The notes beneath the pieces were generated by a model. That model saw only the letters and a program-made list of their open reading frames with translations. It had not been told where the DNA came from and did not search any database. Shown piece by piece: positions 4,194-32,523 of a stretch of DNA of 41,932 nucleotides. Location: the IMG/VR virus record IMGVR_UViG_3300048836_000983, positions 1-41,932 of that record. One strand, 5' to 3'. Within the stretch, counting starts at the first letter, position 1; each line of letters starts with the position of its first letter. The translations under genes and the position numbers were made by a program. This DNA comes from a virus.

Positions 4194-4484
4194 TTAGTAC
4201 AGGTTTAAGTTGAGAAGCTGGTTCAGGCGCAGGCGGCGCAGCTGCCCGGTGAGATCCGCACTCACTTCATCCAGGGTATCGCCCACCGCCGTGGTCGTGG
4301 CGTCCAGCGCTGTGTTCACCTCGCTGCGCGTCTGAACCATTGTTGCCTGCACTTCAGCACGTTGCTGGCCGAAGCCGGTATCAACGGCCACCAAAGCCTC
4401 GCGCAAGCGCAGCACGTCATCTGTGAGCAAGTTGTCTGGATGCGGCAGTGGCAGGTCCAGATAGGGCGTGCGGTCATCGATCAT
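4194..4484 (-). CDS. Small phage tail-module protein, unknown function
   Basis: 96 aa, not recognised by name. It begins MIDDRTPYLDLPLPHPDNLL, a layout seen in N-terminal baseplate-attachment pieces of phage fibres, followed by a strongly helical, Thr/Val/Ala-rich stretch with heptad-like spacing (residues 20-85). It lies between the DUF4815 protein (8-base gap) and the large fibre (13-base gap) in the same operon. It may be a linker or adaptor between baseplate and fibre. The ORF is supported by its tight packing and sense with its neighbours. Confidence 0.6.
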   Translation of the reverse strand: MIDDRTPYLDLPLPHPDNLLTDDVLRLREALVAVDTGFGQQRAEVQATMVQTRSEVNTALDATTTAVGDTLDEVSADLTGQLRRLRLNQLLNLNLY

Positions 4485-4492
4485 GGCTTACC

Positions 4493-7400
4493 TCAAGTGA
4501 CGATCATGCGCAGGTTGCGCACTTGTGCGCGATACTGCGGCGTGTTGGTGATGGCGAGCTTGCAGCGTGTCGTGTCATCAATGCCAACGCCAGACAAACC
4601 CGTCTTCTTCCAGGTCATTTCCACCCAGCCATCTCCCACAGGCTCGCCGCGCTCAAAATCCACAGCTACGAAGTTGCCTGCAATATCGTGTTCGGCAAAC
4701 ACCGCCACAGAGCTGGTGCCGGGAACGAGCACCTCGGCCACCACCTGCACGCTAAATGTCGTGGCGGCAGTGACGGCCCGTGATATGTAAGTGGCTTCGT
4801 TTTCCATGGTGCCGACGATGAACTGTACGTCCGGAGCGAGTACAGGCGATGCCTGTAGTGTGCCGCGCAGTTCTGTGGTCAGGGCCATGGTGCCGGTGAA
4901 TCTGTCGGGTAGGCTTGCGCCCGCGAACTCGCCAAAGGTGAACTTGCGGCCATCGTCCAAGGTGGCCACAAAACGCACATCGCAGCCAGATGCAGGCCGT
5001 TCCACAACGCCCATGGCCATGATGTCGGTCATCAGGCTGACATTCACGTTCGTGGCCAAGGACATGGTTTGGCTGGTGGAAGTGAACCGGCAGCCAAGCA
5101 GGCGGAAGGCCAAGTCCTTGTCCTGATGAGCTGTCCAGGTACTCGCGTTGGAGGACGAGAGCAGCACGCCGATCTGGTAGGGCTGGCTGGTCACCCAGCG
5201 CCGGTTGTGGCTGTCCCATTTGCCAAGTTCGGCCACGGCCAACTCGTGCGTCGTATCGTCAGAGAGAATGCACATGGCGTATTCCGTACCAGCTTCCAGC
5301 CAAACCGGAGCATCAAAGGTGATGCGGGTGGCAGTGCCGTCGGTCTTGATGCCGGTGGCGGCAATGCGGCCCTCGGCCAGAACTCTGCGGGTGGGAAAGC
5401 CAACGCTTGTCTCGCGAATCTGAACCAGGACGTCCTTGTCGCCTTTGACTGTGAACCACAGATCAATGCCGCCAATCATGCGCGACGCATCGAGGGCAAA
5501 GGTCTGGGCCAAGGGGTCCCACCACCAACGCTGGATGGATGTGGTCACACGGTTGCGCCAGGTCTCGACCAAAATGCGCCCCTGGCCGACAAAGGTGGCC
5601 GTGCCATAGGACCCGCCTGAGCCCTCGATCTCAAAGAGCTTCTGTCCGGCTGGGATACTCTCGGGGATGGTGAACGAACCGCTGACCACACCACTTGCAT
5701 TAGCAGTAAGCTCGCCGGGCGCAGGAAGGGAGATCCCGTCAAAACGCAGGGCCGAGACGTTTTCGCTTGGGCCAAAGCCCTTGGCTGTGAATTGCACCGC
5801 GATCTGGCGCAGGAACTCGATATTCTGCGACTCCGACGCCACCCGTTCCTGGGTCGTGGCAGTGGAAGTACTGGCCATGTTGCCCGAGCCCTGGGTGATG
5901 GTCTGGGTGATCGCGTCCGTCCACTGGGTGACTACCTGGGTCCACTGATCCACGGACGGGTTTAGGGTCACCGTGGCAGGCATGGGCAAAATGGCCGCGT
6001 ACGGATTGACCTTCATGGACCCGGTCCGGGCGGTCTGTTCAAGCAGCGATTCTAAGACAAAGGGCAAATGCCGAGCCTGGCCAGACAGGTACGGACCAAC
6101 CACGGCTGCGCCAATCGGAGCCCGCATGGTGCCTCCAAAGATAGCGGCATTCTGCTGGGCTCCGGCATCGCGCATGTCGTTATCCAGGAACGGATCGACA
6201 AAGATTCCCTTCTTGGCAGCTGGTTCGCGGATGGTCAGATCGTTTTTGAGCTGCTCTCTGGCGATGAGTCCAAAGAGGCTGGCGATATCAGACTGCATGG
6301 CAGCCAGATCGTCCGTGCGCACAGTTCGAACGCCCACATTGCGTATCACCGGGTTCTGCTCGACAAACCAGGAATACTCGATGTTGGCCAGCCGCAGCTT
6401 GTCGGAAGGTACGGGCGCGGGCTTGGGATTGCGGGAGACAGATACGCCTTTGAGCACTTCGATGATTCCATCCTGGCTGATGGCCACTGCGTCCACGCGA
6501 GGCATCTTCCAGGTGTAGTCGAGCTGGACGATAGTACCGGGCACGATGCCGGAAACGGTCAGCGAGGCGTCAGTGACAGCCTCGGGCGAGAAGGTCTTGA
6601 TATAGCGGTAGGTGACCGAATAGCTGGAGCCGGGAGCCGGTTCGGCTCCGGCAGGCGACCAGTTGATCGCGCCGCCGGCCACGTTGTAATCGCTGCCCAC
6701 CACATATGTCGTACCGCCTTGTTTGACTTCGAGCACTTCGACCACAGTCGTGTCGGGCAGCGTGTCCGTGCCGCCGGAATATGCGCTGTGGGTGACATTG
6801 GCGGTTTTCTCGGTCGTCGCTGTGATGCGCACGACTTGAGACAACGGCGAGCGGTTCAGGGTAATGACCATCTTGCCATCGCCTCCGGGCGAAAACACAT
6901 GCGGTTCCGCAGTCACAGTTTCCAGGTCCGGATCGATGGCCAGACGCAGGCGCTGATCCTGTTCGCGTTCAACCTTGTAGCCGCGCACGTTGGCAAGGCC
7001 AGACGACACGAGAAAGACGTGCTCGTTGTCTCGCTCCACAAACTTGGCGCTCAGGCCGGACACGATGTAGTGGCCGTTGGCGTCATAGTCGTAGCGGGCT
7101 AGCATCTGGGTCACGCCGTCAAAGACCGGAGGGCGGGTCTTGTTCTGCAGGATGGCGTTTTCCACGGTATAGACCGGATAAAACTGGGCAGTGCCTCCGT
7201 CGCTGGAATTGTCCGGACCCACCCAGCCCCAGGATGCCGTTTCCTGAATGCGGCCAGCGCCGGGCTCCTGATAGTTGCGGGTGCCAACAGCAGGCTCGCG
7301 CAAGGCCGGGTCTTCCAGTTCCGTGACCACGGAGGTCGCCAGACGCACGCCAATGGCCACAATGCCGGAGGTTGGAATCGTAAACGTTGAGCTGGCCACG

Positions 7401-7654
7401 TCGCGCACGGCTCCTGCCAGGTAGACGCGGCCTTCGGACATAAAGACAGTCCCTGTCTGCGGATCCACTGACATGAAGCACCCTTGGACGATATCGCCGT
7501 CCTTGAGCAGGGCGTCGGCCACGCTTTTGAGCTGGTGCTTGAGGGTGGTCTGGATTTCGTTCAGCTCCCGGCTCTGCAGGCCATCGCCTGCCCTAAAGAG
7601 CAGTTCGGAGTAGCGCTTGGCTGGGTCAAAAAGGTTATAGTAGCGTTCAAGCAT
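4493..7654 (-). CDS. Large baseplate/tail protein of the DUF4815 type
   Basis: 1053 aa, the largest gene in the window. The N-terminus (MLERYYNLFDPAKRYSELLF, then R-A-G-D-G-L-Q-S-R-E-L-N-E-I-Q) matches the DUF4815 phage family as I remember it. Residues 1-150 look like a folded attachment domain; the remainder is beta-strand-rich with repeated short sandwich-like units and a segment around residues 690-760 resembling a carbohydrate-binding jelly roll (many V-x-I, W and G residues). A structural role near the host-recognition end of the tail is likely. ATG at 7654 is preceded by GGGAGG. It follows the collar-fibre gene and precedes a small linker gene. Confidence 0.75.
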   Translation of the reverse strand: MLERYYNLFDPAKRYSELLFRAGDGLQSRELNEIQTTLKHQLKSVADALLKDGDIVQGCFMSVDPQTGTVFMSEGRVYLAGAVRDVASSTFTIPTSGIVAIGVRLATSVVTELEDPALREPAVGTRNYQEPGAGRIQETASWGWVGPDNSSDGGTAQFYPVYTVENAILQNKTRPPVFDGVTQMLARYDYDANGHYIVSGLSAKFVERDNEHVFLVSSGLANVRGYKVEREQDQRLRLAIDPDLETVTAEPHVFSPGGDGKMVITLNRSPLSQVVRITATTEKTANVTHSAYSGGTDTLPDTTVVEVLEVKQGGTTYVVGSDYNVAGGAINWSPAGAEPAPGSSYSVTYRYIKTFSPEAVTDASLTVSGIVPGTIVQLDYTWKMPRVDAVAISQDGIIEVLKGVSVSRNPKPAPVPSDKLRLANIEYSWFVEQNPVIRNVGVRTVRTDDLAAMQSDIASLFGLIAREQLKNDLTIREPAAKKGIFVDPFLDNDMRDAGAQQNAAIFGGTMRAPIGAAVVGPYLSGQARHLPFVLESLLEQTARTGSMKVNPYAAILPMPATVTLNPSVDQWTQVVTQWTDAITQTITQGSGNMASTSTATTQERVASESQNIEFLRQIAVQFTAKGFGPSENVSALRFDGISLPAPGELTANASGVVSGSFTIPESIPAGQKLFEIEGSGGSYGTATFVGQGRILVETWRNRVTTSIQRWWWDPLAQTFALDASRMIGGIDLWFTVKGDKDVLVQIRETSVGFPTRRVLAEGRIAATGIKTDGTATRITFDAPVWLEAGTEYAMCILSDDTTHELAVAELGKWDSHNRRWVTSQPYQIGVLLSSSNASTWTAHQDKDLAFRLLGCRFTSTSQTMSLATNVNVSLMTDIMAMGVVERPASGCDVRFVATLDDGRKFTFGEFAGASLPDRFTGTMALTTELRGTLQASPVLAPDVQFIVGTMENEATYISRAVTAATTFSVQVVAEVLVPGTSSVAVFAEHDIAGNFVAVDFERGEPVGDGWVEMTWKKTGLSGVGIDDTTRCKLAITNTPQYRAQVRNLRMIVT

Positions 7655-7665
7655 GGATTTCCTCC

Positions 7666-8352
7666 CTAGAAGGTGACCACAAATTCAAAGGTTTCACGGG
7701 TCGAAGGCTGGCGAACAATGGGCACGGAATGCTGCAGGATGAGCAATATTCCCGGTTCTTCGATCTGGGCTGGGATGAAGAATTTCTGGCCGACCGGCAG
7801 GCCTTCGTTTGTCCCGGTGCCGACAAACAGGCCTTGTTCACGGATGGTGTTGGTGGCTGCGTCTTCGAAATCAAAGCGCACCCGAACAAAGAGATGGTTG
7901 GTGGGTTCTATACTGATAGTATAGCGGCCTGTGGGCACGACGATCTCGCCTTGCGCGTCAGGAGTGACAAAATGCACCTCGTCCACCACTCTTCTGCCGA
8001 CTTCGCGCAGCAGCGCAGTCCTGCCGGTATCCTCTGGAGGTCGACCCGCCATGAACGACACGGTGACTTCGCTGCCTTCCGGGATTGTTCCGGTTATGAC
8101 CCGGTTCAGCGTGCCGGTGGCTGCGTTCACCGTGTAGTCGTCGCCGATGGAGTAGGTTGCGGCCCCGCTTTTGACGACGACACCTGAGATGTGCGTGGAG
8201 CCGGTTTGCAGTTTGTTTTCGGCGTCGAACGCGCCAGAGATTTCCCGAGGAGTGTCCCAAGACGTCTCGCCTTCGCCAAGAGCCAGATGCAGAGGCTGCT
8301 GTTTGATGGCCGCAGCCAAGGCAGCCCGGCCAGATGTGGTCAGGATCGCCAT
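7666..8352 (-). CDS. Phage tail-collar fibre protein (N-terminal P2 gpH-like)
   Basis: 228 aa. The start (MAILTTSGRAALAAAIKQQP then L-H-L-A-L-G-E-G) is the typical N-terminal baseplate-binding segment of phage tail-collar fibre proteins; unlike P2 gpH the protein stops after about 230 residues and has no long shaft or receptor tip. It may be a collar or adaptor, with the DUF4815 protein and the 667-aa fibre supplying the distal parts. Position after gene I is the standard I-H order. Function is inferred from family and place. Confidence 0.8.
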   Translation of the reverse strand: MAILTTSGRAALAAAIKQQPLHLALGEGETSWDTPREISGAFDAENKLQTGSTHISGVVVKSGAATYSIGDDYTVNAATGTLNRVITGTIPEGSEVTVSFMAGRPPEDTGRTALLREVGRRVVDEVHFVTPDAQGEIVVPTGRYTISIEPTNHLFVRVRFDFEDAATNTIREQGLFVGTGTNEGLPVGQKFFIPAQIEEPGILLILQHSVPIVRQPSTRETFEFVVTF

Positions 8353-8381
8353 ATGTACCTCTTAATGAAATGAAGTCGGAG

Positions 8382-10160
8382 TTATTGAGAGACGTTACTG
8401 CTTGCAATGTTTTCGCGCAGGGACTGCCAGGAGGCGTTCTGCGGCCAGGAGATGCCGGTCCAAGTTTGTCCCGCCCATGAAGCGCCCACGGTTAGTGTGC
8501 TCTGGCGCGGGCAGGAAATGGGCGTATAGTCAGGTCTTGTGTCGTCCAGAAAGAAGCGCCCGAGCGCGTGGTCCAGGTGGACGGGAGTCTGCGTTGTTAG
8601 ACAGGGCAGGCTTGCCACCACTGGTAGCTGTACGGTTTGATGGTGCTGTGCACTTTCTGTTTGGGAGCGATCAAACCGCTCGGCGATTTCAACCCGGCAT
8701 ATTCCCCCCGGCGTATCCGAGAGCAGGCTTTGGCCCAAGCGTACCCTCTCGCCTGCTTCCTGCCAGAAGAATCTGGGCGTGCAGGCGTTGGTGCTCCCCA
8801 GGGCCTGACCATCATCTGACGGGACAATCTCAGCCCGGCAGAACTTGCGTTCAGGCGTTGTCAGTGCCGGAACCCTGGACCAATGCGAGGTTCTGCGCAC
8901 CGTCTTGGGCACAGACTCAAGCCGCCACAGCTCTCCGGTCCTGCCGTCAGACAGCCGCACCGGCCCGCCATGCTCGACCCGTACAAAGAGATCATCCTCA
9001 TCGATAACCTCGACTTGTTCGACCATGGGCGAATTCTCCCAGGTCTTGAGGGATTCTCTTTGCCATGCGTCACGGACGTCCTTGTCGGTGCAGGTGCGCA
9101 GCACGCCAAGCCAAAAGCCCAGACCCAGGCCATAGGCTCCGCGTATGGATGATCGAACAGGCGTAAACGCAAAGGTTGGAATTGCAACGTCGACAGGATG
9201 TGAACGATCAAAACGCTCGGTCACTTCCTCTCTCTCGATGCGCATCCGGGTGGCGTTCAGATCGCTCTCAGAGGATAAGCGGAACCAATCCCCCGTTTCG
9301 ACGAGCGTAAAGCGTGGCAGGCAGGCGTTGGTATCTCCCAAACGCCAGCCATCGTCGGATGGTACAACTTCGGCCTTGCAGAATTTCCTCCTTGGGAATG
9401 GCTGCGCGTCTCGGGCACCTTGGCTATTGGCATTCACAAACAGATGCGAGTGCATGATGAACGGATTGGGTACGGGTTGGCAGGTGTCCAGAAGCATCCA
9501 ATCAAGCAGGCAGCGGTCGCCATATTTGACCCCGCTCGCCCGGGTGGGCACCTGCGCCGATTCCAGCCTGACAGCGCCCAGGGTCGCGATCTCTTCCCGA
9601 GTACGTCCAAAGGAGAGCTTGGTATATCCGTCACCCCACCAGATCACGCCGCTGTTATCGCAGAGCAGGGCGTCGCCCAACAAATCCGTGTCCAGCAGGA
9701 AGCGGCGCAGATCGTAGCCATGATACATGCGCGAAAGCCGGGATCTGGCGGGCGCTGACAGCCGCACAATGGCCAGCACACGTTCTATCCACTTGTCATC
9801 GTCAATGACCCGGCCAGGATCGATTTGGAACTCGGCGTAATGCACGCCGGGCACCTCCTGCTCCACGGTGACAACCGTATCCACCCAGGACAGCGCCACT
9901 TTCAGGGCCCTCGGCGTGCCGCGCAGGCGTTGCCACAGGATGCCTTCGGCAATGGCCCGCCTGGGATCAGGCAGGTACGGGAGCAGTTCGCCAAGTCCGT
10001 ATTCCCAGATAAGCCAGGGTAAGAGCGAGACGACCGGGTCGAACTTGAAACTGCGCAGGGCGGCAATCCCTGGCCCAACCCGGGCCAGGGGATCCATGGA
10101 CAAGGACAGCGCCCGTTCCAGGTTCGTTGCGTTGGCGGGAAGCAGGTGCTGTGGAGTCAT
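8382..10160 (-). CDS. I: Tail protein I (P2 gpI family) with a long duplicated C-terminal extension
   Basis: 592 aa, more than three times the length of P2 gpI (about 180 aa). Residues 1-170 carry the gpI core: M-D-P-L-A-R-V, P-W-L-I-W-E-Y-G, G-T-P-R-A-L-K-V-A-L, the wedge/baseplate component that works next to gpJ. The rest is an extension with two related blocks: about residues 255-325 (R-R-K-F-C-K-A-E-V-V-P-S-D-D-G ... E-R-F-D-R-S) and about residues 440-510 (E-R-K-F-C-R-A-E-I-V-P-S-D-D-G ... E-R-F-D-R-S). These look like an internal duplication of a small beta domain. The start overlaps gene J by ATGA. Confidence 0.85.
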   Translation of the reverse strand: MTPQHLLPANATNLERALSLSMDPLARVGPGIAALRSFKFDPVVSLLPWLIWEYGLGELLPYLPDPRRAIAEGILWQRLRGTPRALKVALSWVDTVVTVEQEVPGVHYAEFQIDPGRVIDDDKWIERVLAIVRLSAPARSRLSRMYHGYDLRRFLLDTDLLGDALLCDNSGVIWWGDGYTKLSFGRTREEIATLGAVRLESAQVPTRASGVKYGDRCLLDWMLLDTCQPVPNPFIMHSHLFVNANSQGARDAQPFPRRKFCKAEVVPSDDGWRLGDTNACLPRFTLVETGDWFRLSSESDLNATRMRIEREEVTERFDRSHPVDVAIPTFAFTPVRSSIRGAYGLGLGFWLGVLRTCTDKDVRDAWQRESLKTWENSPMVEQVEVIDEDDLFVRVEHGGPVRLSDGRTGELWRLESVPKTVRRTSHWSRVPALTTPERKFCRAEIVPSDDGQALGSTNACTPRFFWQEAGERVRLGQSLLSDTPGGICRVEIAERFDRSQTESAQHHQTVQLPVVASLPCLTTQTPVHLDHALGRFFLDDTRPDYTPISCPRQSTLTVGASWAGQTWTGISWPQNASWQSLRENIASSNVSQ

Positions 10161-11041
10161 CGGTCACGTCCGGCAAATTCAAGATTGATACTGGTCAGGC
10201 GCACGGCTTGGTGCGCCAAGGCCCGGATGCTGGCAGTAGGCGAGGAGAGCTCTACTTTGTGCACGCCATCCTTGTGCAGTTCGCTGATGATCCAGGACTG
10301 GGTCAGATCCCAGCCAAGTCCGGCGCTCGCCAGGAGTCGTCTGGGAAACTCATGGGCGATGGCATCGATGATCTCAATCGGAGCATCGGGATAAAGCCAG
10401 ATTCTGGCCTGCACATTCACATGCAGGATTTCAGCGGGCACGACCATGACGGTATCGGTCAGTACCCGCACATCATCACGCATGATGACCGCCGAGACAG
10501 CATCCAGCACCTCCGGCGGCACGTTTTCCCTGTCACCAGTGGCCAGCACGTTTACCCGCACCTGTCCGGGAGCCGGGCTATCCACTGCCACATCGGCCAC
10601 CTCCGGCGAAGCGGACAAGGCCCAGTAGCGGTAGTGCGCAGCGCCACCCGCACAGGCAAAGCCAATGATTCTGGCCCTGATCCGCAGGCGAAGAGACGTG
10701 TCATCTTCCATGATGCGCGGCGTGATGGGCCGGGTAGCCAAGTCCTCTTCCTGGATGACCATGCGAAACACGCCATAAAAGCTGGCCAGATGATCAAGGT
10801 CACTGCCACCGGCAAAGGCGAGCAGGTTGGCCCTGGCCGCGCCGTTGACCCGCGCACGCAGGAGCAGTTCGCGGTATGCGGCCACCTCCAGGAGCTTTAT
10901 GGCCGGGTCGGATTCCAGAAAGGCGGAATAATCCGGCCAGCGGGCTTTGAAGTCGTCCTTGAGGGCGGCCAGAATCTTTTCGTAGTCCAAGGCCTCGATA
11001 ATTTGGGGCAAGGGCAGATCGGAGAGTTCCTTGACCTTCAT
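10157..11041 (-). CDS. J: Baseplate assembly protein J
   Basis: 294 aa, the normal length for P2 gpJ (about 300 aa). It forms the baseplate wedge with W and I. Recognisable are the N-terminal L-S-D-L-P-L-P-Q-I-I, the block around residues 60-90 with L-L-R-A-R-V-N-G-A-A-R-A-N-L-L-A-F-A and D-L-D-H-L, and the V-R-V-N-V-L-A segment of the Baseplate_J domain. Start and stop both overlap neighbours (W upstream, I downstream) as ATGA, so W-J-I form one coupled translation unit. Confidence 0.95.
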   Translation of the reverse strand: MKVKELSDLPLPQIIEALDYEKILAALKDDFKARWPDYSAFLESDPAIKLLEVAAYRELLLRARVNGAARANLLAFAGGSDLDHLASFYGVFRMVIQEEDLATRPITPRIMEDDTSLRLRIRARIIGFACAGGAAHYRYWALSASPEVADVAVDSPAPGQVRVNVLATGDRENVPPEVLDAVSAVIMRDDVRVLTDTVMVVPAEILHVNVQARIWLYPDAPIEIIDAIAHEFPRRLLASAGLGWDLTQSWIISELHKDGVHKVELSSPTASIRALAHQAVRLTSINLEFAGRDR

Positions 11042-21636: not shown

Positions 21637-21957
21637 ATGAAGGTCCAAGCTCAAGAAACAAAGATGCGTTACCCAGACGGCACCCCGTACATATTCGAGA
21701 ATGTTCGAACTTTCGTCGAGCAGCACGGGCATAAGGTTTGGAGTGAATTGTGCGATGCAATGCCCGCAGACACTTGGTTTTCGGTCGGTGCGGCCGCAGG
21801 GCAATTGCCCAGTCTTGCCGGGCAAGATGATCCCGAACATTGCCTCAAGGCGGTGCTTTGCGCGATCTTGGCGGATTACACAGACCGCCCTGACGATTAT
21901 GAGCACCAGTCGCCGGTGGCATTTGGGGATTACGAATTCAACAACGCATGCATCTAG
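21637..21957 (+). CDS. Small protein of cassette B, unknown function
   Basis: 106 aa, acidic, not recognised. Features: M-R-Y-P-D-G-T-P-Y-I-F-E-N-V-R near the start, an aromatic-rich centre, C-L-K-A-V-L-C-A-I-L-A-D-Y and the C-terminal F-G-D-Y-E-F-N-N-A-C-I. The ATG has a strong GGAGG site. It is bracketed by two almost identical GAAA-loop hairpins and shares the leader of the gene before it. Two paired Cys residues are not arranged as a metal site. Confidence 0.7.
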   Translation: MKVQAQETKMRYPDGTPYIFENVRTFVEQHGHKVWSELCDAMPADTWFSVGAAAGQLPSLAGQDDPEHCLKAVLCAILADYTDRPDDYEHQSPVAFGDYEFNNACI

Positions 21958-21968
21958 GTCGCATTTCC

Positions 21969-21996
21969 GGGCCAGGGAAACCTGGCCCTCTCATTT
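21969..21996 (+). terminator. Hairpin with GAAA tetraloop, copy 2
   Basis: The same stem-loop as at 21589 (GGGCCAGG-GAAA-CCTGGCCC) at 21969-21988, followed by TCTCATTTCC. The tail is less U-rich than in copy 1, so termination may be weak and the element may act as an RNA stabiliser or processing site before the DUF3489 gene. Confidence 0.65.
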
Positions 21997-22018
21997 CCAA
22001 ACACGGGAGGACATTGCA

Positions 22019-22522
22019 ATGACGGAACAAACCACACTTACCGAGCGGCAGTTGGAACTGATCACCAAGGCGGAAACAGACCATGGCGGAATGATTGAGC
22101 CGCTGCTCGATTTGAAGGGCGGGGCCAAGGTCAAAATGATCGGCGCTCTCTCTCGGCGAGGGCTGATCCAAAAGCAAGACAACCAGTGGCGAACCAGCGC
22201 CTTGGCCCAGTCCATCGTTCGCGGTGACGCGTACCCCATCGCACCGGCAAACAAGCAGGCGCCCGATTGCGAACCGACCCAGGTGCGCAGGCACAGCAAA
22301 CAGTCCATGGTGGTGGACATGCTCTCAAGGCCCGAGGGCGCGACCATTGAGCAAATCGTGGAACGCACTGGCTGGCAAGCGCACACGGTACGCGGCGTAT
22401 TCGCAGGCGCCCTGAAGAAGAAACTCGGCCTGACCATTGCCTCCGAGAAAACCTCTGGCCCGGGTGGAGCTCAGCGGATTTATCGAATCGCCCAGGGTGC
22501 GCAGCCAGGTGTTCCGAAATGA
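22019..22522 (+). CDS. DUF3489-family protein with two winged-helix-like segments
   Basis: 167 aa from ATG at 22019, preceded by GGGAGG; the open frame extends upstream but overlaps the previous gene in a different frame. The C-terminal half carries the DUF3489 signature: S-K-Q-S-M-V-V-D-M-L-S-R-P-E-G-A-T-I-E-Q-I-V-E-R-T-G-W-Q-A-H-T-V-R-G-V-F-A-G-A-L-K-K-K-L-G, an HTH-like fold, then G-G-A-Q-R-I-Y-R-I. The N-terminal half resembles a second, degenerate helix-turn-helix (G-A-L-S-R-R-G-L-I). DNA or RNA binding is likely; regulation of the cassette array is a possible role. Last gene of cassette B. Confidence 0.85.
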   Translation: MTEQTTLTERQLELITKAETDHGGMIEPLLDLKGGAKVKMIGALSRRGLIQKQDNQWRTSALAQSIVRGDAYPIAPANKQAPDCEPTQVRRHSKQSMVVDMLSRPEGATIEQIVERTGWQAHTVRGVFAGALKKKLGLTIASEKTSGPGGAQRIYRIAQGAQPGVPK

Positions 22523-24048: not shown

Positions 24049-26106
24049 TTATATCTTGAAGCGGGAAACCTGCTCTCTTAGGCGTTCAGCTAACTGTGAG
24101 AGCTCCGTAGCGCTTTCCTGGACAGTCTGGCTGCTTGCAGTCATCTCATCTGAAGCGGTGCGTACCTCGGCGATGTCGGAACTGATGGAGTGGGTCATAG
24201 AGGAACTGGCGGCCACATTGGTGTTGATTTCGGTGATCCCTGTGGAAGCCTGACCAACGTTTTCGGCAATGTCGCGGGTAGTCACGGACTGCTCTTCCAC
24301 CGCCGTGGCGATGGTTCCGACTATTTCGTTCATCTCTGCAATGACGCTTGTGATTTCTGAAATGTCACCTACGGTTTGAGACGTCACAGACTGAATCCCT
24401 GTGATTCGCTCACGGATATCTTCCGTTGCTCGAGCGGTCTGCTGAGCCAGTTCTTTGATTTCATTGGCCACGACCGCAAACCCCCGTCCGGCCTCACCAG
24501 CCCGCGCCGCTTCAATGGTAGCATTAAGGGCCAGCAGGTTTGTCTGGGAGGATATGGCGGTTATAGTGGCGGTTACCGCGCTTATCTCTTTGGCAGCCGA
24601 ACCCAGCTGGTCCACACGGCCGGATGTGGCCTGGGCCTTGGATACAGCGTTTGCCGTCGTACTCCTCGCCCGTTCGGAGTTTTGGGCGATTTCCTGAATG
24701 GTCGCAGACATTTCTTCGGCTGCTGACGCTACGGTAGTCATGTTCATGGAGGCCTGCTCCATGGCTGCGGAGACGGAGTTCATGCTGCTACTGACTTCTT
24801 CGGCCGATGTACTGACCGTGTTGGCCATACCCGCAGTCTGGGATGAACTTTGGGTCATTTGGGCGGAAATGCTGGAGAGCTGCGTAGAGGCAGTGGCAAG
24901 GGACTGGGTGGCAGTGTTGATCTCGCCAAGCATTTCTTTGGTGCGACCAACCATAGTATTCAAAGCTTCGGAAAGGTGTCCGATGGCATCCTTGGCGGGA
25001 TGGCTGAATGTAATTGTGTAATCGCCTTCGGCAACCAGCAAGCTTTTGGACGCGAGTTGGTTTAACGGCCTAGCGATGCCACGGATCAAGAGCACAGCGA
25101 TGAGTACGCCGAGCAGCATGACGGCGATGCCAACGAAGACGCATTTAGTGATGATTTCTGTATCTAATCCACGAACCATCTGTGCATCACTCAGACCTAC
25201 GCCAAGATGCCAGTCCCATGGCTCAAAATAATGAGTGAATGTACTCTTCCGCTCTCCTTCCCACAGGTAATCGAGAAAGCCATCCTTATGAGTGCGAAAA
25301 ATTTCTCCAATTCCTTGAACTTCAAAAAGGTTCTTCCCTTCGAGGGTAGGGTGTACGAGGACATTTCCCTTGGAATCGTAGACATAGAAATAACCAACTC
25401 CGGCTGCTTTGACGGTGCTCAACATATCTCGAAGCTGCGGAGTGAGTATCTTTCGTCCAACGAAGAGCACTGCTACGATTTTATTTTCGGCGCCACGCAC
25501 GGGCTTGTAGGAAGTCACATACCAGTCATCGACTACGAAGGCCCTACCGGTATAGGTGTTGCCGCTCATGACGGCCTTATACACAGGGCTGTCCGCAGGA
25601 ATGAACGTATCTATAGCTCGGCTATCGTTTACTCGCACGTTGGTGGAAACCCGCAGCAGTTTTCCATCGAGCACCTGAAAGATGGTTGTAACGCCTCCGG
25701 TCAGGGATTGTACCTTGTCGACGATTTCCGTATTGCCGTTAATTACCGTACTCCCGAGTCTGAGTCGGGGAATGCTAATACTCTCAGAGGCCCTGCTGGC
25801 TTGGTTGGTGATGGTTTTGTCCAGAGTATAACTCATGTCCAGTTGAAATAAACCGTAATGATTCAATTCTCCTTCCAGGATGGTCATATCGCCGGAAAGC
25901 TTTTCCAAAAGCAGGGAATTCTGTGCCTCTAAAGAAGCGAAGACGGAGTCGTTCATGTTTTCCAAGGCATCCTTGCCGAGGCTTTGAAGCCCGTCTTTTA
26001 CTAGGATGGTGGTCACGATGATGACCGAGACAATCGAGAGCACGAGGATGGACAGGATCCCTGTGAACAATTTTGTAGTAAACTTAACGGACTGGGTGTT
26101 GAGCAT
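24049..26106 (-). CDS. Methyl-accepting chemotaxis protein (Cache sensor, HAMP, MCP signal domain)
   Basis: 685 aa, complete. Membrane segment 1 at residues 14-36, then an extracytoplasmic sensor (about 40-315) of the Cache_3-Cache_2 type ([35 protein letters not shown]), membrane segment 2 at 322-342, HAMP to about 395, and a full MCP signalling region with the tip around [30 protein letters not shown]. No CheR-docking pentapeptide at the C-terminus (ends R-F-K-I). It would feed into CheA/CheW of the host. Very unusual among phage genes. AAAGAGG precedes ATG, and it has its own terminator. Its right edge coincides with loss of the end of a DUF7220-type gene. Confidence 0.97.
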
Positions 26107-28333: not shown

Positions 28334-28383
28334 TTTTAAAAATATCAAATTTTTAATTTATTTTTTAATTATCAGGAGTGAAG

Positions 28384-28740
28384 ATGCTTCAATTAGAAAA
28401 AAATGGGTATTATGCAGTGCAAAATAAAAGAAAATCATTGCGCAAAGCTTCACTGACCATGTGTGTTGTTGAAAAGTGTTTCTCTGCGTGTGAAAAAATA
28501 TATTCACGCTCCATTAATTATAGCGATAATGGATGTATGCTCGAGATGGATTATTCTCTATCACCAGGGGATGCTATTAAAATTTATTTCACTCCCGATG
28601 CTGATGAGACGAAAATGTTTGGAAAAAATCCCTGCTTGGGCACCGTGCGATGGTGCAAGGCCCAGAACGGGAGTAGCGGCGGTTTTTATGGTGTGGGCGT
28701 GGAGTTGTTCAGTCAGGCTCCCCGGCGGCAAGCCTATTAG
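28384..28740 (+). CDS. PilZ-domain protein (probable c-di-GMP receptor)
   Basis: 118 aa from ATG at 28384, preceded by AGGAG with a 5-base gap (a GTG six bases earlier is inside that site). It has both PilZ c-di-GMP-binding motifs: RxxxR as R16-K-S-L-R20 and N-x-S-x-x-G as N45-Y-S-D-N-G50, followed by a beta barrel (M-L-E-M-D-Y-S-L-S-P-G-D-A-I-K-I-Y-F; G-T-V-R-W; F-Y-G-V-G-V-E-L-F). Single-domain PilZ proteins act on flagella, pili or exopolysaccharide. AT-rich, opposite in strand to the phage operon, and next to a truncated phage gene, it looks like acquired cargo. Confidence 0.88.
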   Translation: MLQLEKNGYYAVQNKRKSLRKASLTMCVVEKCFSACEKIYSRSINYSDNGCMLEMDYSLSPGDAIKIYFTPDADETKMFGKNPCLGTVRWCKAQNGSSGGFYGVGVELFSQAPRRQAY

Positions 28741-29646: not shown

Positions 29647-30192
29647 TCAAATTGCATTGCATATGCGGTGTAAAAACTTTCTTTGTCTGACTGTTACGAT
29701 TCTGTCTGCTTGCATGGCCATCCCGAAACGTGCCTGGACTCTCTGTCTCCTGCGAAGCAAGTAGAGCACTCCGACCTGCTTGCCTCTGCGCTCAAAGACT
29801 TTCCCGTTGCGCACAAACACATTCCTGCGACTCCGCAGTGCCCGAGGCCAGAGCGACTTGGGCAGCACCTTGGTGCGAGCGATAGCGGCCATCCTGCCGA
29901 CCGGAATGGACAAGCGGCCGGATTTGGTCCCGCCTGTCTCCTGCTGCTCCATGAAACGGTCTCGGGAGAATACAGTGGCCGTGAGCGTTGATGCGCTGGC
30001 AGGAGCCACGCCGATGCCCTTGGCGACCCATGGCCTGCGGATGGTGAATCTGTTCGGGAGCGAGGCCCTGACACCGTCGCGCACGTCGTAAGCCAGACCG
30101 GTCAGCGCTTTGCCCACTGCCTTGCGCAACTGGCTCATGTCCCGGATGACCGCCAGTCGTGCGGCCTTGGCGTCAACTGTCAGCTTGAGCAT
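29647..30192 (-). CDS. Phage structural-type protein, unknown function
   Basis: 181 aa from ATG at 30192; the frame is open upstream, but that is within the previous gene. Basic protein beginning M-L-K-L-T-V-D-A-K-A-A-R-L-A-V-I-R-D; D-G-V-R-A-S-L-P-N-R-F-T-I-R-R-P-W-V-A-K-G-I and R-D-R-F-M-E-Q-Q-E-T-G-G are a pattern I associate with phage minor tail or virion proteins of uncertain role, similar in layout to HK97 gp10. The C-terminal 60 residues are very Arg-rich. It overlaps the preceding gene by 20 bases. Confidence 0.6.
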   Translation of the reverse strand: MLKLTVDAKAARLAVIRDMSQLRKAVGKALTGLAYDVRDGVRASLPNRFTIRRPWVAKGIGVAPASASTLTATVFSRDRFMEQQETGGTKSGRLSIPVGRMAAIARTKVLPKSLWPRALRSRRNVFVRNGKVFERRGKQVGVLYLLRRRQRVQARFGMAMQADRIVTVRQRKFLHRICNAI

Positions 30193-30388
30193 GTTTCTTC
30201 CTGCCGCGTCCGGGCTTGATGCTCTCAGGCTGGGCTTGCTCTTGGACGACCTGTTTGTCCTCTTCGAGAACGATTGCGGCCTTCTGGCGCAAGTACACTT
30301 CGCCAACGCTGGCCGGGACATCGATGATCACGCCTGGCGCAAGCATCTGTGCACCTTGGAACAAGGGTCTGGTAATGCGGATTTTCAT
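30173..30388 (-). CDS. Small phage protein, unknown function
   Basis: 71 aa. The first 40 residues (M-K-I-R-I-T-R-P-L-F-Q-G-A-Q-M-L-A-P-G-V-I-I-D-V-P-A-S-V-G-E-V-Y-L-R-Q-K-A-A) read as a small beta domain of the kind found beside phage head or connector genes; the tail is Gln/Glu/Lys-rich and ends in K-P-G-R-G-R-K-K. It is the first gene after the terminator at 30412, and overlaps the next gene. Confidence 0.65.
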   Translation of the reverse strand: MKIRITRPLFQGAQMLAPGVIIDVPASVGEVYLRQKAAIVLEEDKQVVQEQAQPESIKPGRGRKKHAQADS

Positions 30389-30411
30389 GGTGGGCCTCGC
30401 AGGTTTGAAAT

Positions 30412-30442
30412 AAAAAAGCCCACCAGGAGGTCCGGGCGGGCT
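30412..30442 (-). terminator. Intrinsic terminator at the end of the Rpn unit
   Basis: Stem AGCCCaCC / GGcGGGCT (30417-30424 with 30435-30442, one mismatch), followed on the minus strand by TTTTTT (30417-30412). It separates the Rpn unit from the two phage genes upstream of the small terminase. Confidence 0.8.
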
Positions 30443-30481
30443 AGGGTAGGCGCTGACGCCAAAGGGAGGATTCGAGGAGAT

Positions 30482-30760
30482 TTATGCGTTGTCTGAGAAA
30501 ACGTCGTCGATGGTTTTTGCGTCGAGGATGCGCTCTGCCCAGGTGTCCAACTGTTCTGGCGAGGAGCTCATGAGCCGGTCCTGCAGGCACAGGTCGATGG
30601 TGTTCTCGCCAAAACGTTTGACGAGCAGGCGGTGTAACATGGCCACCCGACCTTTGATTTCGCCTTCCTTTCGACCTTTGGCCTCACCTCTGGCTTCTCC
30701 TCTGGCCTCGTCTTCTGAAATCCATTTTCCGCTGAAAAGCGGAAGTCGTTCTGCAGGCAT
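30482..30760 (-). CDS. Detached copy of the Rpn C-terminal domain (RpnS-like)
   Basis: 92 aa from ATG at 30760, preceded by AAGGTGA; a GTG at 30769 is also possible. It is a second copy of the last 92 residues of the adjacent full-length Rpn protein, with 67 of 92 residues identical by my count and no indel. Its helix has five four-residue units (EARG, EARG, EAKG, RKEG, EIKG). In studied Rpn systems the separately made C-terminal domain (RpnS) blocks the toxic full-length nuclease; this gene would provide such a domain from its own reading frame. No nuclease residues are present. It is read 36 bases after the nuclease gene, before the terminator at 30412. Confidence 0.82.
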   Translation of the reverse strand: MPAERLPLFSGKWISEDEARGEARGEAKGRKEGEIKGRVAMLHRLLVKRFGENTIDLCLQDRLMSSSPEQLDTWAERILDAKTIDDVFSDNA

Positions 30761-30796
30761 TGCTATCACCTTGGCGAGTTCAAGTAAGTCGGGTGA

Positions 30797-31075
30797 TTAT
30801 GCCTTGTCTGAAAAAACTTCGTCGATGGTCTTGGCGTCGAGGATACGCTCTGCCCAGACGTCGAGCTGCTCCGGCGAGGAGTTCATGAGTCGTTCCTGCA
30901 GGCGCAGATCGATGATGTTTTTGCCGAAGCGTTTGACAAGCTGGCGGTGCAGGATGGCTGCGCGGCCCTTGGCCTCGCCTCTGGCCTCACCTCTGGCCTC
31001 GCCTTCCTTCCGGCCTATGGCCTCACCTTCCGAGATCCATTTTTCGCTGAACAGCGGGAGTTTATCTGCAAGCAT
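30797..31075 (-). CDS. Internal RpnS within the Rpn gene (predicted internal start)
   Basis: An in-frame ATG at codon 246 (31075) is preceded by a full GAGGTGA ribosome site (31087-31081) and a 5-base spacer. It would give 92 residues, exactly the length of the detached copy downstream. Internal translation of the C-terminal domain as an antitoxin is established for Rpn proteins of other bacteria; here it is inferred from the strong site. Confidence 0.7.
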   Translation of the reverse strand: MLADKLPLFSEKWISEGEAIGRKEGEARGEARGEAKGRAAILHRQLVKRFGKNIIDLRLQERLMNSSPEQLDVWAERILDAKTIDEVFSDKA

Positions 31076-31810
31076 GGCTATCACCTCTTCGAGTTCGGTT
31101 ACGTCGGGTATCTGTACGCTTTCGCCCAGACGTTGTCTGAGCACCCGTTTGGCCCAGACTGTCAGAGCCCGACGCAGGCTCAGATATTTGGGTCCACTAA
31201 ATATTTGCATAAAGCGAGCAAGGTCCAAAGACAAGTCCTGGAGGTCATCTCTGCGCTCCATGCGCACAAAGAGACTCGCCGCGCTCTCGTTCTGTAGGCT
31301 TTCTTCCGGCGTATGCCGAGCGTCCACGAGAAAGTAGCGCAGGCTCGGGTGGTACTTGGCCAGGAAGCGCGAGGTCGGAACGATCAGTTCGGAGACTTCC
31401 TCTCTGGCGTTCCAGGCAGAGGCTCCCCGGTAGAGCACCAGTGGGAAGACCGGTGGCAAAAGTTCTCCGGTTTTGACGGCGCCTGACTTAATCAAGTCCT
31501 GGTACAAGAGGCCCACGTAGACCATGATACGCACAGCCATCCACGGGTCAATCTCGCTTTGAAATTCGATGAGCAGGTACACGTAGAACCACTGGCCGCG
31601 AAACTTGACCCGCCAGATGACGTCGTCATGGCGTTCACGCAAATCATCGGTGACGTAGGAGCCGTTTTGCTTTTCAAGAGTCGAGAAGTCGAGATGGCTC
31701 ACCCACTCTTCAGGTACGAAGTCCCGGATAAGACTCTCGACCATCTCCTGGTGGCTGAACAGGAGCTTGTACGATTCGTCGTGCGGTGTGTTTTCACGGG
31801 TGCTGGCCAT
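30797..31810 (-). CDS. rpn: Rpn-family PD-(D/E)XK nuclease (recombination-promoting nuclease / transposase_31 type)
   Basis: 337 aa, usual length for Rpn proteins. N-terminal H-D-E-S-Y-K-L-L-F-S (residues 10-19), then the catalytic core D62-D63-V-I-W, V-Y-L-L-I-E82-F-Q84-S-E and R94 in M-A-V-R-I-M-V-Y, matching the family's D...ExQ active site. Residues 246-337 form the C-terminal DUF4351-like domain with five tetrads (EAIG, RKEG, EARG, EARG, EAKG). Full-length Rpn is known as a toxic DNase acting against phage. Bounded by terminators at 31852 and 30412, it is a separate module in the phage genome. AGGAG precedes ATG. Confidence 0.92.
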   Translation of the reverse strand: MASTRENTPHDESYKLLFSHQEMVESLIRDFVPEEWVSHLDFSTLEKQNGSYVTDDLRERHDDVIWRVKFRGQWFYVYLLIEFQSEIDPWMAVRIMVYVGLLYQDLIKSGAVKTGELLPPVFPLVLYRGASAWNAREEVSELIVPTSRFLAKYHPSLRYFLVDARHTPEESLQNESAASLFVRMERRDDLQDLSLDLARFMQIFSGPKYLSLRRALTVWAKRVLRQRLGESVQIPDVTELEEVIAMLADKLPLFSEKWISEGEAIGRKEGEARGEARGEAKGRAAILHRQLVKRFGKNIIDLRLQERLMNSSPEQLDVWAERILDAKTIDEVFSDKA

Positions 31811-31851
31811 AGGTAACTCCTAGCGTAGGCGGCGAAGGCAGGCAAGGCATG

Positions 31852-31885
31852 AAAAAACCCGCCGATGCGCAAATTCATCGACGGG
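31852..31885 (-). terminator. Intrinsic terminator closing the early operon
   Basis: CCCGcCGATG (31858-31867) pairs with CATCGaCGGG (31876-31885) around an 8-base loop, one mismatch, followed on the minus strand by TTTTTT (31857-31852). It lies 66 bases past the stop of the last early gene and upstream of the Rpn start. Confidence 0.85.
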
Positions 31886-31950
31886 CACAATTTCTGACTT
31901 TCGAGAAAAAACCTACTTTCTGTCTGACAGCTATGTCAACCCACGAATTT
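31886..31950 (-). promoter_or_regulatory. Possible promoter before the terminator
   Basis: TTGACA at 31939-31934 on the minus strand, with TAGGTT 18 bases later as a weak -10. It would start just ahead of the terminator, so it could drive the Rpn gene with attenuation or only a short terminated RNA. Weak evidence. Confidence 0.3.
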
Positions 31951-32523
31951 TCATCCCGGTCGATTTTTTGAAGACTCATTGCGCATGGCCCGGATCCTTC
32001 CGGTTCTGGGCACGAGGCCATAAACTCGAGTCAGACCCCACAGCGCACTGACCAGAACACCTTTGGCTTCGTCCGTGGTCATAGATCGTCCTCTCCAGCC
32101 GGCTCTGGTGGACCATTCACGCAGCGAGGCGCCAAGGCCCACCACATACCAGAGGGCGGCGGCGCTTGGGCTTTCGTGTCCGCCGACTGCCTCGATAGCG
32201 TTCCACACCGCCTGAGCTGAAGTGGCATTCGTGACAACGATTGATTCTCCCTGTCCGGAGCTGCTCAGGCCACTAATTTCCGACGGCCATCCAGAGCCGT
32301 AGCCTGATGCGAAGGCTCGGTGAAAATCCGCCTCGAAGATCCGCCCGGCATCGTGCATGTCCTGGTTGATGGCGTTGTTCTTGAGCAGAAGCGTCAGAGT
32401 GTCCATGACGCGGTAGTGGTCAGCGGTTTTGTTTTCGTCGTCACGCTCGCGCACAAACCGGGCAGTGCTGCCGTCAGGGCGTACCACGCAATCGCCAATT
32501 CGCGGTTTCTTACGTGCTCTCAT
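31951..32523 (-). CDS. Phage protein with DUF6456-like helical domain, possible regulator
   Basis: 190 aa, last gene of the early operon. The N-terminal G-D-C-V-V-R-P-D-G-S-T-A is a small beta part; the centre D-H-Y-R-V-M-D-T-L-T-L-L-L-K-N-N-A-I-N-Q-D-M-H-D-A-G-R-I-F-E-A-D-F-H-R-A-F resembles the DUF6456 family; W-N-A-I-E-A-V-G-G and L-W-Y-V-V-G-L-G-A-S-L-R-E-W follow. Its position at the end of the early operon, where antiterminators or late activators often sit, suggests a regulatory role; that is inference only. ATGA overlap with the gene before. Confidence 0.6.
   Translation of the reverse strand: MRARKKPRIGDCVVRPDGSTARFVRERDDENKTADHYRVMDTLTLLLKNNAINQDMHDAGRIFEADFHRAFASGYGSGWPSEISGLSSSGQGESIVVTNATSAQAVWNAIEAVGGHESPSAAALWYVVGLGASLREWSTRAGWRGRSMTTDEAKGVLVSALWGLTRVYGLVPRTGRIRAMRNESSKNRPG

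What the first reader, a model, noticed from the sequence alone, without database searches (positions are those of the whole stretch)
30482..31810. Rpn nuclease followed by a second, free-standing C-terminal domain gene
The full-length Rpn protein ends in a 92-residue domain with an internal start (31075, GAGGTGA site). Directly downstream, 30482-30760 encodes a separate 92-residue copy, 67 of 92 identical, with its own AAGGTGA site. Published work on Rpn describes the C-terminal domain (RpnS) as an intragenic antitoxin against a toxic antiphage nuclease, with a helix of four-residue repeats whose number varies. Here both copies carry five tetrads but in different order: EAIG-RKEG-EARG-EARG-EAKG against EARG-EARG-EAKG-RKEG-EIKG. 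A detached second antitoxin-like domain could raise antitoxin supply, allow a dual-specificity switch, or let the phage neutralise a host Rpn of the other repeat type.
Basis: partly seen in the sequence, partly recalled or inferred. Interest (0 to 1): 0.78.

Follow-up and report, generated by a model that had tools for sequence, protein, structure and literature searches.

The report
Phage nuclease-antitoxin gene with detached antitoxin copy
A temperate bacterial virus carries a known kind of self-restrained DNA-cutting defence gene followed by a second, free-standing copy of its built-in antitoxin; that layout is already described in E. coli, but comparing copies shows that detached antitoxins elsewhere usually differ from the neighbouring nuclease in repeat number while this one matches, which makes their purpose testable.

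Summary
RpnL (31810-30797, minus strand) has PF04754 and DUF4351 regions. Its stop codon is followed in frame, 12 codons later, by a separate 92-residue DUF4351 gene (30760-30482) that is 67/92 identical. Both copies keep five tetrads in permuted order. The detached copy is a maintained gene: dN/dS is about 0.13-0.18 outside the tetrads, and it is no more derived than its parent. The internal start is real by comparison: Met246 is invariant and preceded by a ribosome site in 23/23 homologues.

The arrangement is not new. Zhong et al. 2023 (PMC10327210) describe separate downstream rpnS genes (rpnE-ypaA, rpnC). New here: (1) in 12 E. coli genomes (9 allele pairs), three other bacterial loci and one more viral locus, the detached copy never has the neighbour's tetrad number; the window pair (5 = 5) is the only match. 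(2) The gene sits in a toxin-antitoxin/abortive-infection cargo hotspot of AcaML1-like phages, which holds ParDE, TacA/GNAT, AbiD, RelE or HigBA in relatives.

Best reading: a phage-borne RpnL/RpnS toxin-antitoxin module with a duplicated antitoxin that fits its own RpnL. It is a new member of a known kind. The fit itself is inferred, not shown.

The parts
30797..31810 (-). rpnL: full-length Rpn family nuclease, 337 aa (PF04754 residues 8-202, DUF4351-like C-terminus)
   Evidence: D63, E82, Q84 (PD-(D/E)XK type pattern) invariant in 23 homologues
30797..31075 (-). intragenic rpnS: C-terminal domain with its own ATG (31075), 92 aa
   Evidence: Met246 invariant in 23/23 homologues, Shine-Dalgarno match in 23/23 against 29% at other codon positions
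31081..31087 (-). GAGGTGA ribosome site of the internal start
30965..31024 (-). five tetrads of RpnL: EAIG-RKEG-EARG-EARG-EAKG
30482..30760 (-). rpnS2: detached, separately encoded C-terminal domain copy, 92 aa
   Evidence: DUF4351 E=6e-7, 29.9 bits, cut-off 25; dN/dS about 0.13-0.18 outside tetrads
30766..30772 (-). AAGGTGA ribosome site of rpnS2
30650..30709 (-). five tetrads of RpnS2: EARG-EARG-EAKG-RKEG-EIKG
30761..30799 (-). single TAA stop of rpnL plus 12 in-frame codons before the rpnS2 ATG; homologous to the linker upstream of the internal start
30417..30442 (-). intrinsic terminator after rpnS2 (hairpin then TTTTTT)
   Evidence: z = -2.8
31857..31886 (-). intrinsic terminator 46 nt upstream of the rpnL ATG (leader terminator)
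   Evidence: z = -2.9
31910..31939 (-). promoter-like TTGACA-18-TAGGTT before the leader terminator; the same promoter-terminator layout precedes cargo in L093, L099, L275 and L276
   Evidence: about one match to a pattern this loose is expected by chance in the window, so it rests on position and on the relatives
31951..32523 (-). DUF6456-like gene that marks the left border of the cargo site
30173..30388 (-). 71-aa gene that marks the right border (start of the late genes)

Best explanation
This is a phage-borne RpnL/RpnS nuclease toxin-antitoxin module whose antitoxin exists twice. RpnL is the PD-(D/E)XK nuclease. Its own 3' third makes RpnS from an internal start. An in-place tandem duplication of that 3' third, including linker and ribosome site, produced rpnS2 directly behind the rpnL stop codon. 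RpnS2 most likely forms the same helical dimer as RpnS and, having the same five-tetrad helix length, pairs with RpnL and adds to its restraint, so that the prophage can carry a nuclease aimed at competing phages without harming its lysogen or itself. Shown here by sequence: gene anatomy, duplication, selection to keep both copies, conserved internal start, matched tetrad number, cargo-site context. Inferred: translation, binding, neutralisation, defence.
For: Pfam assignment of both proteins. Invariant Met246 with ribosome site in 23/23 homologues, always over a GAG codon. Both copies share a two-residue insertion after FG that none of 22 aligned homologues has, so the duplication happened in this lineage or the copies were later homogenised. 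dN/dS about 0.13-0.18, and equal numbers of derived residues in the two copies. Tetrad number 5 = 5; published work says one extra repeat on one side abolishes neutralisation and restoring the match restores it (PMC10327210). The gene occupies a site that in related phages holds ParD/ParE, TacA/GNAT, AbiD, RelE+HTH, HigB+HTH or another rpn. K-12 rpnE-ypaA has the same in-frame, one-stop layout, and its detached protein was detected by tagging in that paper.
Against: Elsewhere detached copies never match their neighbour's tetrad number (0 of 9 E. coli allele pairs; also +1, -1, +2, -3, -3, -6 and -8 in other loci), so supplying the neighbour is not the general role, and one match in a series could be chance (about 0.24 for two random RpnL proteins). 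The effect of tetrad order is unknown. The structure models are weak (pLDDT 69 and 70) and gave no significant PDB match. PADLOC has no hit.
Confidence: 0.5

Rival explanations
1. RpnS2 is an antitoxin of different specificity: its permuted helix does not serve its own RpnL but neutralises another Rpn, for example one of the host or of a competing prophage, or switches which nuclease is free.
For: In E. coli (9 allele pairs), G157, G466, G404 and viral L279 the detached copy differs in tetrad number from the adjacent nuclease, so published rules predict no cross-neutralisation. RpnA and RpnB antitoxins do not cross-protect.
Against: The window pair is the one with equal number. No lone RpnS of this subtype was found in phage or viral collections.
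Confidence: 0.22
2. The detached copy is a donor cassette: recombination between the two C-terminal domains swaps the second domain onto the nuclease and changes its antitoxin type, as with orphan toxin or immunity modules.
For: In 4 of 4 sampled E. coli strains without the detached gene, RpnE ends in the detached copy's tail (FDRD/IDRD...SEADLAANNH), i.e. the interval was deleted and the cassette fused; the paper also reports such fusions. The G157 array holds at least four detached copies around one rpnL.
Against: A donor role does not by itself explain its own start, ribosome site and purifying selection. It is compatible with, not exclusive of, the antitoxin role. No switched relative of the window locus is known.
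Confidence: 0.18
3. rpnS2 is a non-functional remnant of a partial tandem duplication.
For: It is a partial duplication; tandem rpn duplications are common according to PMC10327210.
Against: Low dN/dS, no stop or frameshift after substantial divergence (dS about 0.65-0.85), same number of derived residues as the parent copy, intact start and ribosome site.
Confidence: 0.08

Closest known systems
E. coli rpnE-ypaA (rpnES) and rpnC-rpnCS, Zhong et al. 2023 (PMC10327210)
   Same: Full-length Rpn nuclease with intragenic RpnS followed directly by a detached RpnS gene, in frame behind one TAA (seen here for rpnE); tetrad helix varies between the copies.
   Different: Those are chromosomal; detached rpnES tetrad number never equals the neighbour's in 12 genomes. 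Here it is phage-borne, in a cargo site, with equal number and permuted order; overall sequence similarity to E. coli Rpn is low (NCBIfam RpnA E=3e-16, far below its cut-off).
Rpn/YhgA-like nucleases of the bacterial order of genome G157, e.g. loci L216-L219 (47-49% identity)
   Same: Same domain order, catalytic pattern D63-E82-x-Q84, internal Met246 and ribosome site.
   Different: Most lack a detached copy; arrays such as G157 (L202) carry several with different tetrad numbers.
Prophage defence and toxin-antitoxin cargo hotspots (ParDE, TacAT, AbiD, HigBA)
   Same: Same genomic site in related phages.
   Different: Those are classic two-gene or single-gene modules; here the antitoxin is both inside and behind the toxin gene.

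Membership tests
RpnL/RpnS toxin-antitoxin (Zhong et al. 2023) | N-terminal PF04754 PD-(D/E)XK nuclease domain | tested here: met
   PF04754 E=1e-34, 120 bits, cut-off 21; D63, E82, Q84 invariant in 23 homologues
RpnL/RpnS toxin-antitoxin (Zhong et al. 2023) | C-terminal domain with variable four-residue repeats | tested here: met
   five tetrads in each copy; span varies in steps of four in homologues
RpnL/RpnS toxin-antitoxin (Zhong et al. 2023) | internal translation start with ribosome site for RpnS | tested here: met
   invariant ATG and SD in 23/23, background 29%; translation itself not shown
RpnL/RpnS toxin-antitoxin (Zhong et al. 2023) | RpnS binds RpnL and blocks its nuclease and toxicity | not testable with these tools
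   needs bench work
RpnL/RpnS toxin-antitoxin (Zhong et al. 2023) | RpnS three-helix bundle dimer as in PDB 7TH0 | tested here: inconclusive
   the model shows helices after the tetrad region but pLDDT is 70 and no significant PDB match was found
RpnL/RpnS toxin-antitoxin (Zhong et al. 2023) | anti-phage protection | not testable with these tools
   only context: defence cargo site in relatives
Detached downstream rpnS (ypaA/rpnES type) | separate DUF4351-type ORF directly downstream, homologous to the adjacent RpnS | tested here: met
   same one-stop in-frame layout as K-12 rpnE-ypaA
DUF4351 (PF14261) | score above curated cut-off of 25 bits | tested here: met
   RpnS2 29.9 bits; RpnL C-terminus 24.2 bits, just below
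NCBIfam TIGR01784 subfamily | score above cut-off of 52.1 | tested here: not met
   32.1 bits; not filed there

The most novel reading that the evidence does not exclude
RpnS2 is a purpose-shaped better partner for RpnL than RpnL's own RpnS. Its tetrad order is close to the mirror image of RpnL's: RKEG and the isoleucine tetrad sit at positions 2 and 1 in RpnL, 4 and 5 in RpnS2. If the long helices pair antiparallel, like tetrads face each other with opposite charges and the RpnL:RpnS2 pair is favoured over either homodimer (simple charge score -8 against 0 and -2), so tetrad order, not just number, would encode specificity. Caveats: post hoc, helix orientation not checked, and 20% of random orders score as well.
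Probability: 0.08. Interest if true: 0.7.

Novelty: new member of a known kind. Interest (0 to 1): 0.42.

Why it matters
What detached RpnS genes are for is open: the 2023 paper showed one is made but not what it does. The comparison here splits the question. In E. coli the detached copy should not fit its neighbour by the published repeat rule, while in this phage it should. Testing both pairs would show whether detached copies are spare antitoxins, antitoxins of other specificity or recombination cassettes. The locus also places Rpn in a toxin-antitoxin and abortive-infection cargo hotspot of temperate phages, supporting a role in competition between phages, and shows strong conservation of the internal start outside E. 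coli.

Tried and rejected
Direct scans of viral and genome contigs with the two proteins found no relatives; an alignment of 23 homologues found five viral ones. Sequence search of the PDB found no homologue, including with the profile; Foldseek with the RpnL and RpnS2 models gave nothing significant. PADLOC has no Rpn model hit. A search for lone RpnS in viral contigs, phages and plasmids found none of this subtype beyond full-length Rpn. Remnant hypothesis rejected by dN/dS and the neutral simulation. Avoidance of equal tetrad numbers in E. coli cannot be claimed: 0.56 matches expected under random pairing of the nine alleles, 0 seen; only enforced matching is excluded. Stop-codon read-through giving a two-domain RpnL was considered (same frame, one TAA) but nothing supports it. 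No promoter-like site that passes the scan lies between the leader terminator and rpnL, so expression by read-through of that terminator is a guess.

Full report
CHECK. All stated coordinates, starts and identities are right. The detached ORF lies in the same frame as rpnL, behind one TAA and 12 codons. Homology between the two units begins just upstream of the internal ribosome site and runs through both stop codons; the downstream flanks are unrelated. This is a partial tandem duplication with a 315-bp period. Both copies share a two-residue insertion after the FG motif that none of the 22 aligned homologues has, so the copies arose in this lineage or were homogenised.

IS THE DETACHED COPY A GENE? 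Outside the tetrads the copies differ at 38 nucleotides, 24 of them at third codon positions; dN is 0.12 and dS 0.65 (NG86), or 0.11 and 0.85 (ML). Neutral placement of 38 changes gives 25 amino-acid differences on average (minimum 17) against 15 seen, and creates a stop in 73% of trials. Against the outgroup the two copies carry equal numbers of less typical residues, 6 and 6. It is a maintained coding sequence. Pfam calls it DUF4351 above the cut-off. A pairwise dN/dS averages both branches, so weak relaxation of one copy cannot be excluded.

INTERNAL START. In 23 Rpn proteins (window plus 22 homologues at 38-48% identity), Met246 is invariant and is preceded in all 23 by a Shine-Dalgarno match of at least four bases at proper spacing; 29% of other codon positions meet the same test. 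The catalytic pattern D63, E82-x-Q84 is invariant.

KNOWN STATUS. Zhong et al. 2023 (PMC10327210) established RpnL as toxin, RpnS as intragenic antitoxin and tetrad number as specificity determinant (one added repeat abolishes neutralisation), and also report that RpnS can be encoded as a separate downstream gene annotated as DUF4351 (ypaA = rpnES after rpnE; rpnCS after rpnC), arising independently. The layout found here is therefore a new instance, not a new kind. K-12 rpnE-ypaA shows the same one-stop, in-frame arrangement.

TETRAD NUMBERS OF PAIRS. Twelve E. coli genomes with both copies give nine distinct pairs, with differences of -7, -4, -4, -4, -3, -2, -2, +1 and +3, none zero. Random pairing of those alleles would give 0.56 matches, so avoidance is not shown, but a requirement to match is excluded. 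Other loci: G466 (L245) +1; G404 (L218, about 1 kb downstream) -1; G157 (L202) -3, -6, -8 and -3; viral L279 +2 (read by eye from the translations). The window pair is 0, while the chance of equality for two random RpnL proteins is about 0.24. Detached copies are uncommon: apart from the window and the chosen E. coli locus, three of 54 evaluable RpnL loci had one on the same strand within 600 bp downstream, one of them only a fragment, and no RpnL locus in a further order had one.

CASSETTE DYNAMICS. Four E. coli strains without the detached gene all have an RpnE that ends in the detached copy's tail, as expected from a deletion between the two domains. G157 has at least four detached copies around one rpnL.

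CONTEXT. The record is a virus of the AcaML1 group: its primase is 69% identical to Acidithiobacillus phage AcaML1 and up to 74% to relatives in proteobacterial genomes and viral contigs. Between a DUF6456-like gene and the first late gene, relatives have either little or nothing (32-121 bp: L006, L007, L089, L096, L098, AcaML1) or cargo: ParD/ParE (L003, L084, L086, L116), TacA/GNAT (L004, L005, L090), AbiD/Abi_2 (L093, L276), RelE with HTH (L099), HigB with HTH (L021), or rpn (window, L276, and L275 with its right border unseen). Several cargo units, this one included, begin with a promoter-like site and a terminator; here the leader terminator ends 46 nt before rpnL and a second terminator follows rpnS2. 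Regulation by terminator read-through is a guess.

MECHANISM. Most likely RpnS2 adds to the restraint of its own RpnL (0.5). Alternatives are other specificity (0.22), donor cassette (0.18; not exclusive) and remnant (0.08). No translation, binding or activity has been shown here.

LIMITS. E. coli pairs were picked for length diversity, not at random. Structure models are weak. Host of the phage unknown.

Noticed in passing
window 24049-26106 (-): Complete-looking methyl-accepting chemotaxis receptor (Cache_3-Cache_2, HAMP, MCPsignal) inside the phage, between a ParB-like/DNA methyltransferase gene and the large terminase gene; unusual phage cargo.
   Followed up: no
window 28378-28740 (+): PilZ domain protein (c-di-GMP binding family) on the opposite strand near the terminase small subunit gene; together with the chemoreceptor it suggests a second cargo region that touches motility signalling.
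   Followed up: no
window 30389-31950 and L003, L004, L005, L021, L084, L086, L090, L093, L099, L116, L275, L276: Cargo hotspot of AcaML1-like phages between a DUF6456-like gene and the first late gene, holding varied toxin-antitoxin and abortive-infection genes, often behind a promoter-terminator leader.
   Followed up: partly
L202 (G157) 4358-10206: Array of one rpnL with at least four detached C-terminal domain ORFs, plus other nuclease-like proteins ending in the same domain.
   Followed up: partly
L274, L312, L313, L315 (E. coli rpnE): Strains without the detached rpnES carry its tail on RpnE itself: deletion between the two domains swaps the antitoxin type.
   Followed up: partly
L279 69-1480 (+): Another viral contig with rpn followed by a 152-aa ORF ending in a second C-terminal domain, two tetrads longer than its neighbour's.
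   Followed up: partly
window 21701-22522 (+): DUF3489 protein on the opposite strand within the structural region.
   Followed up: no
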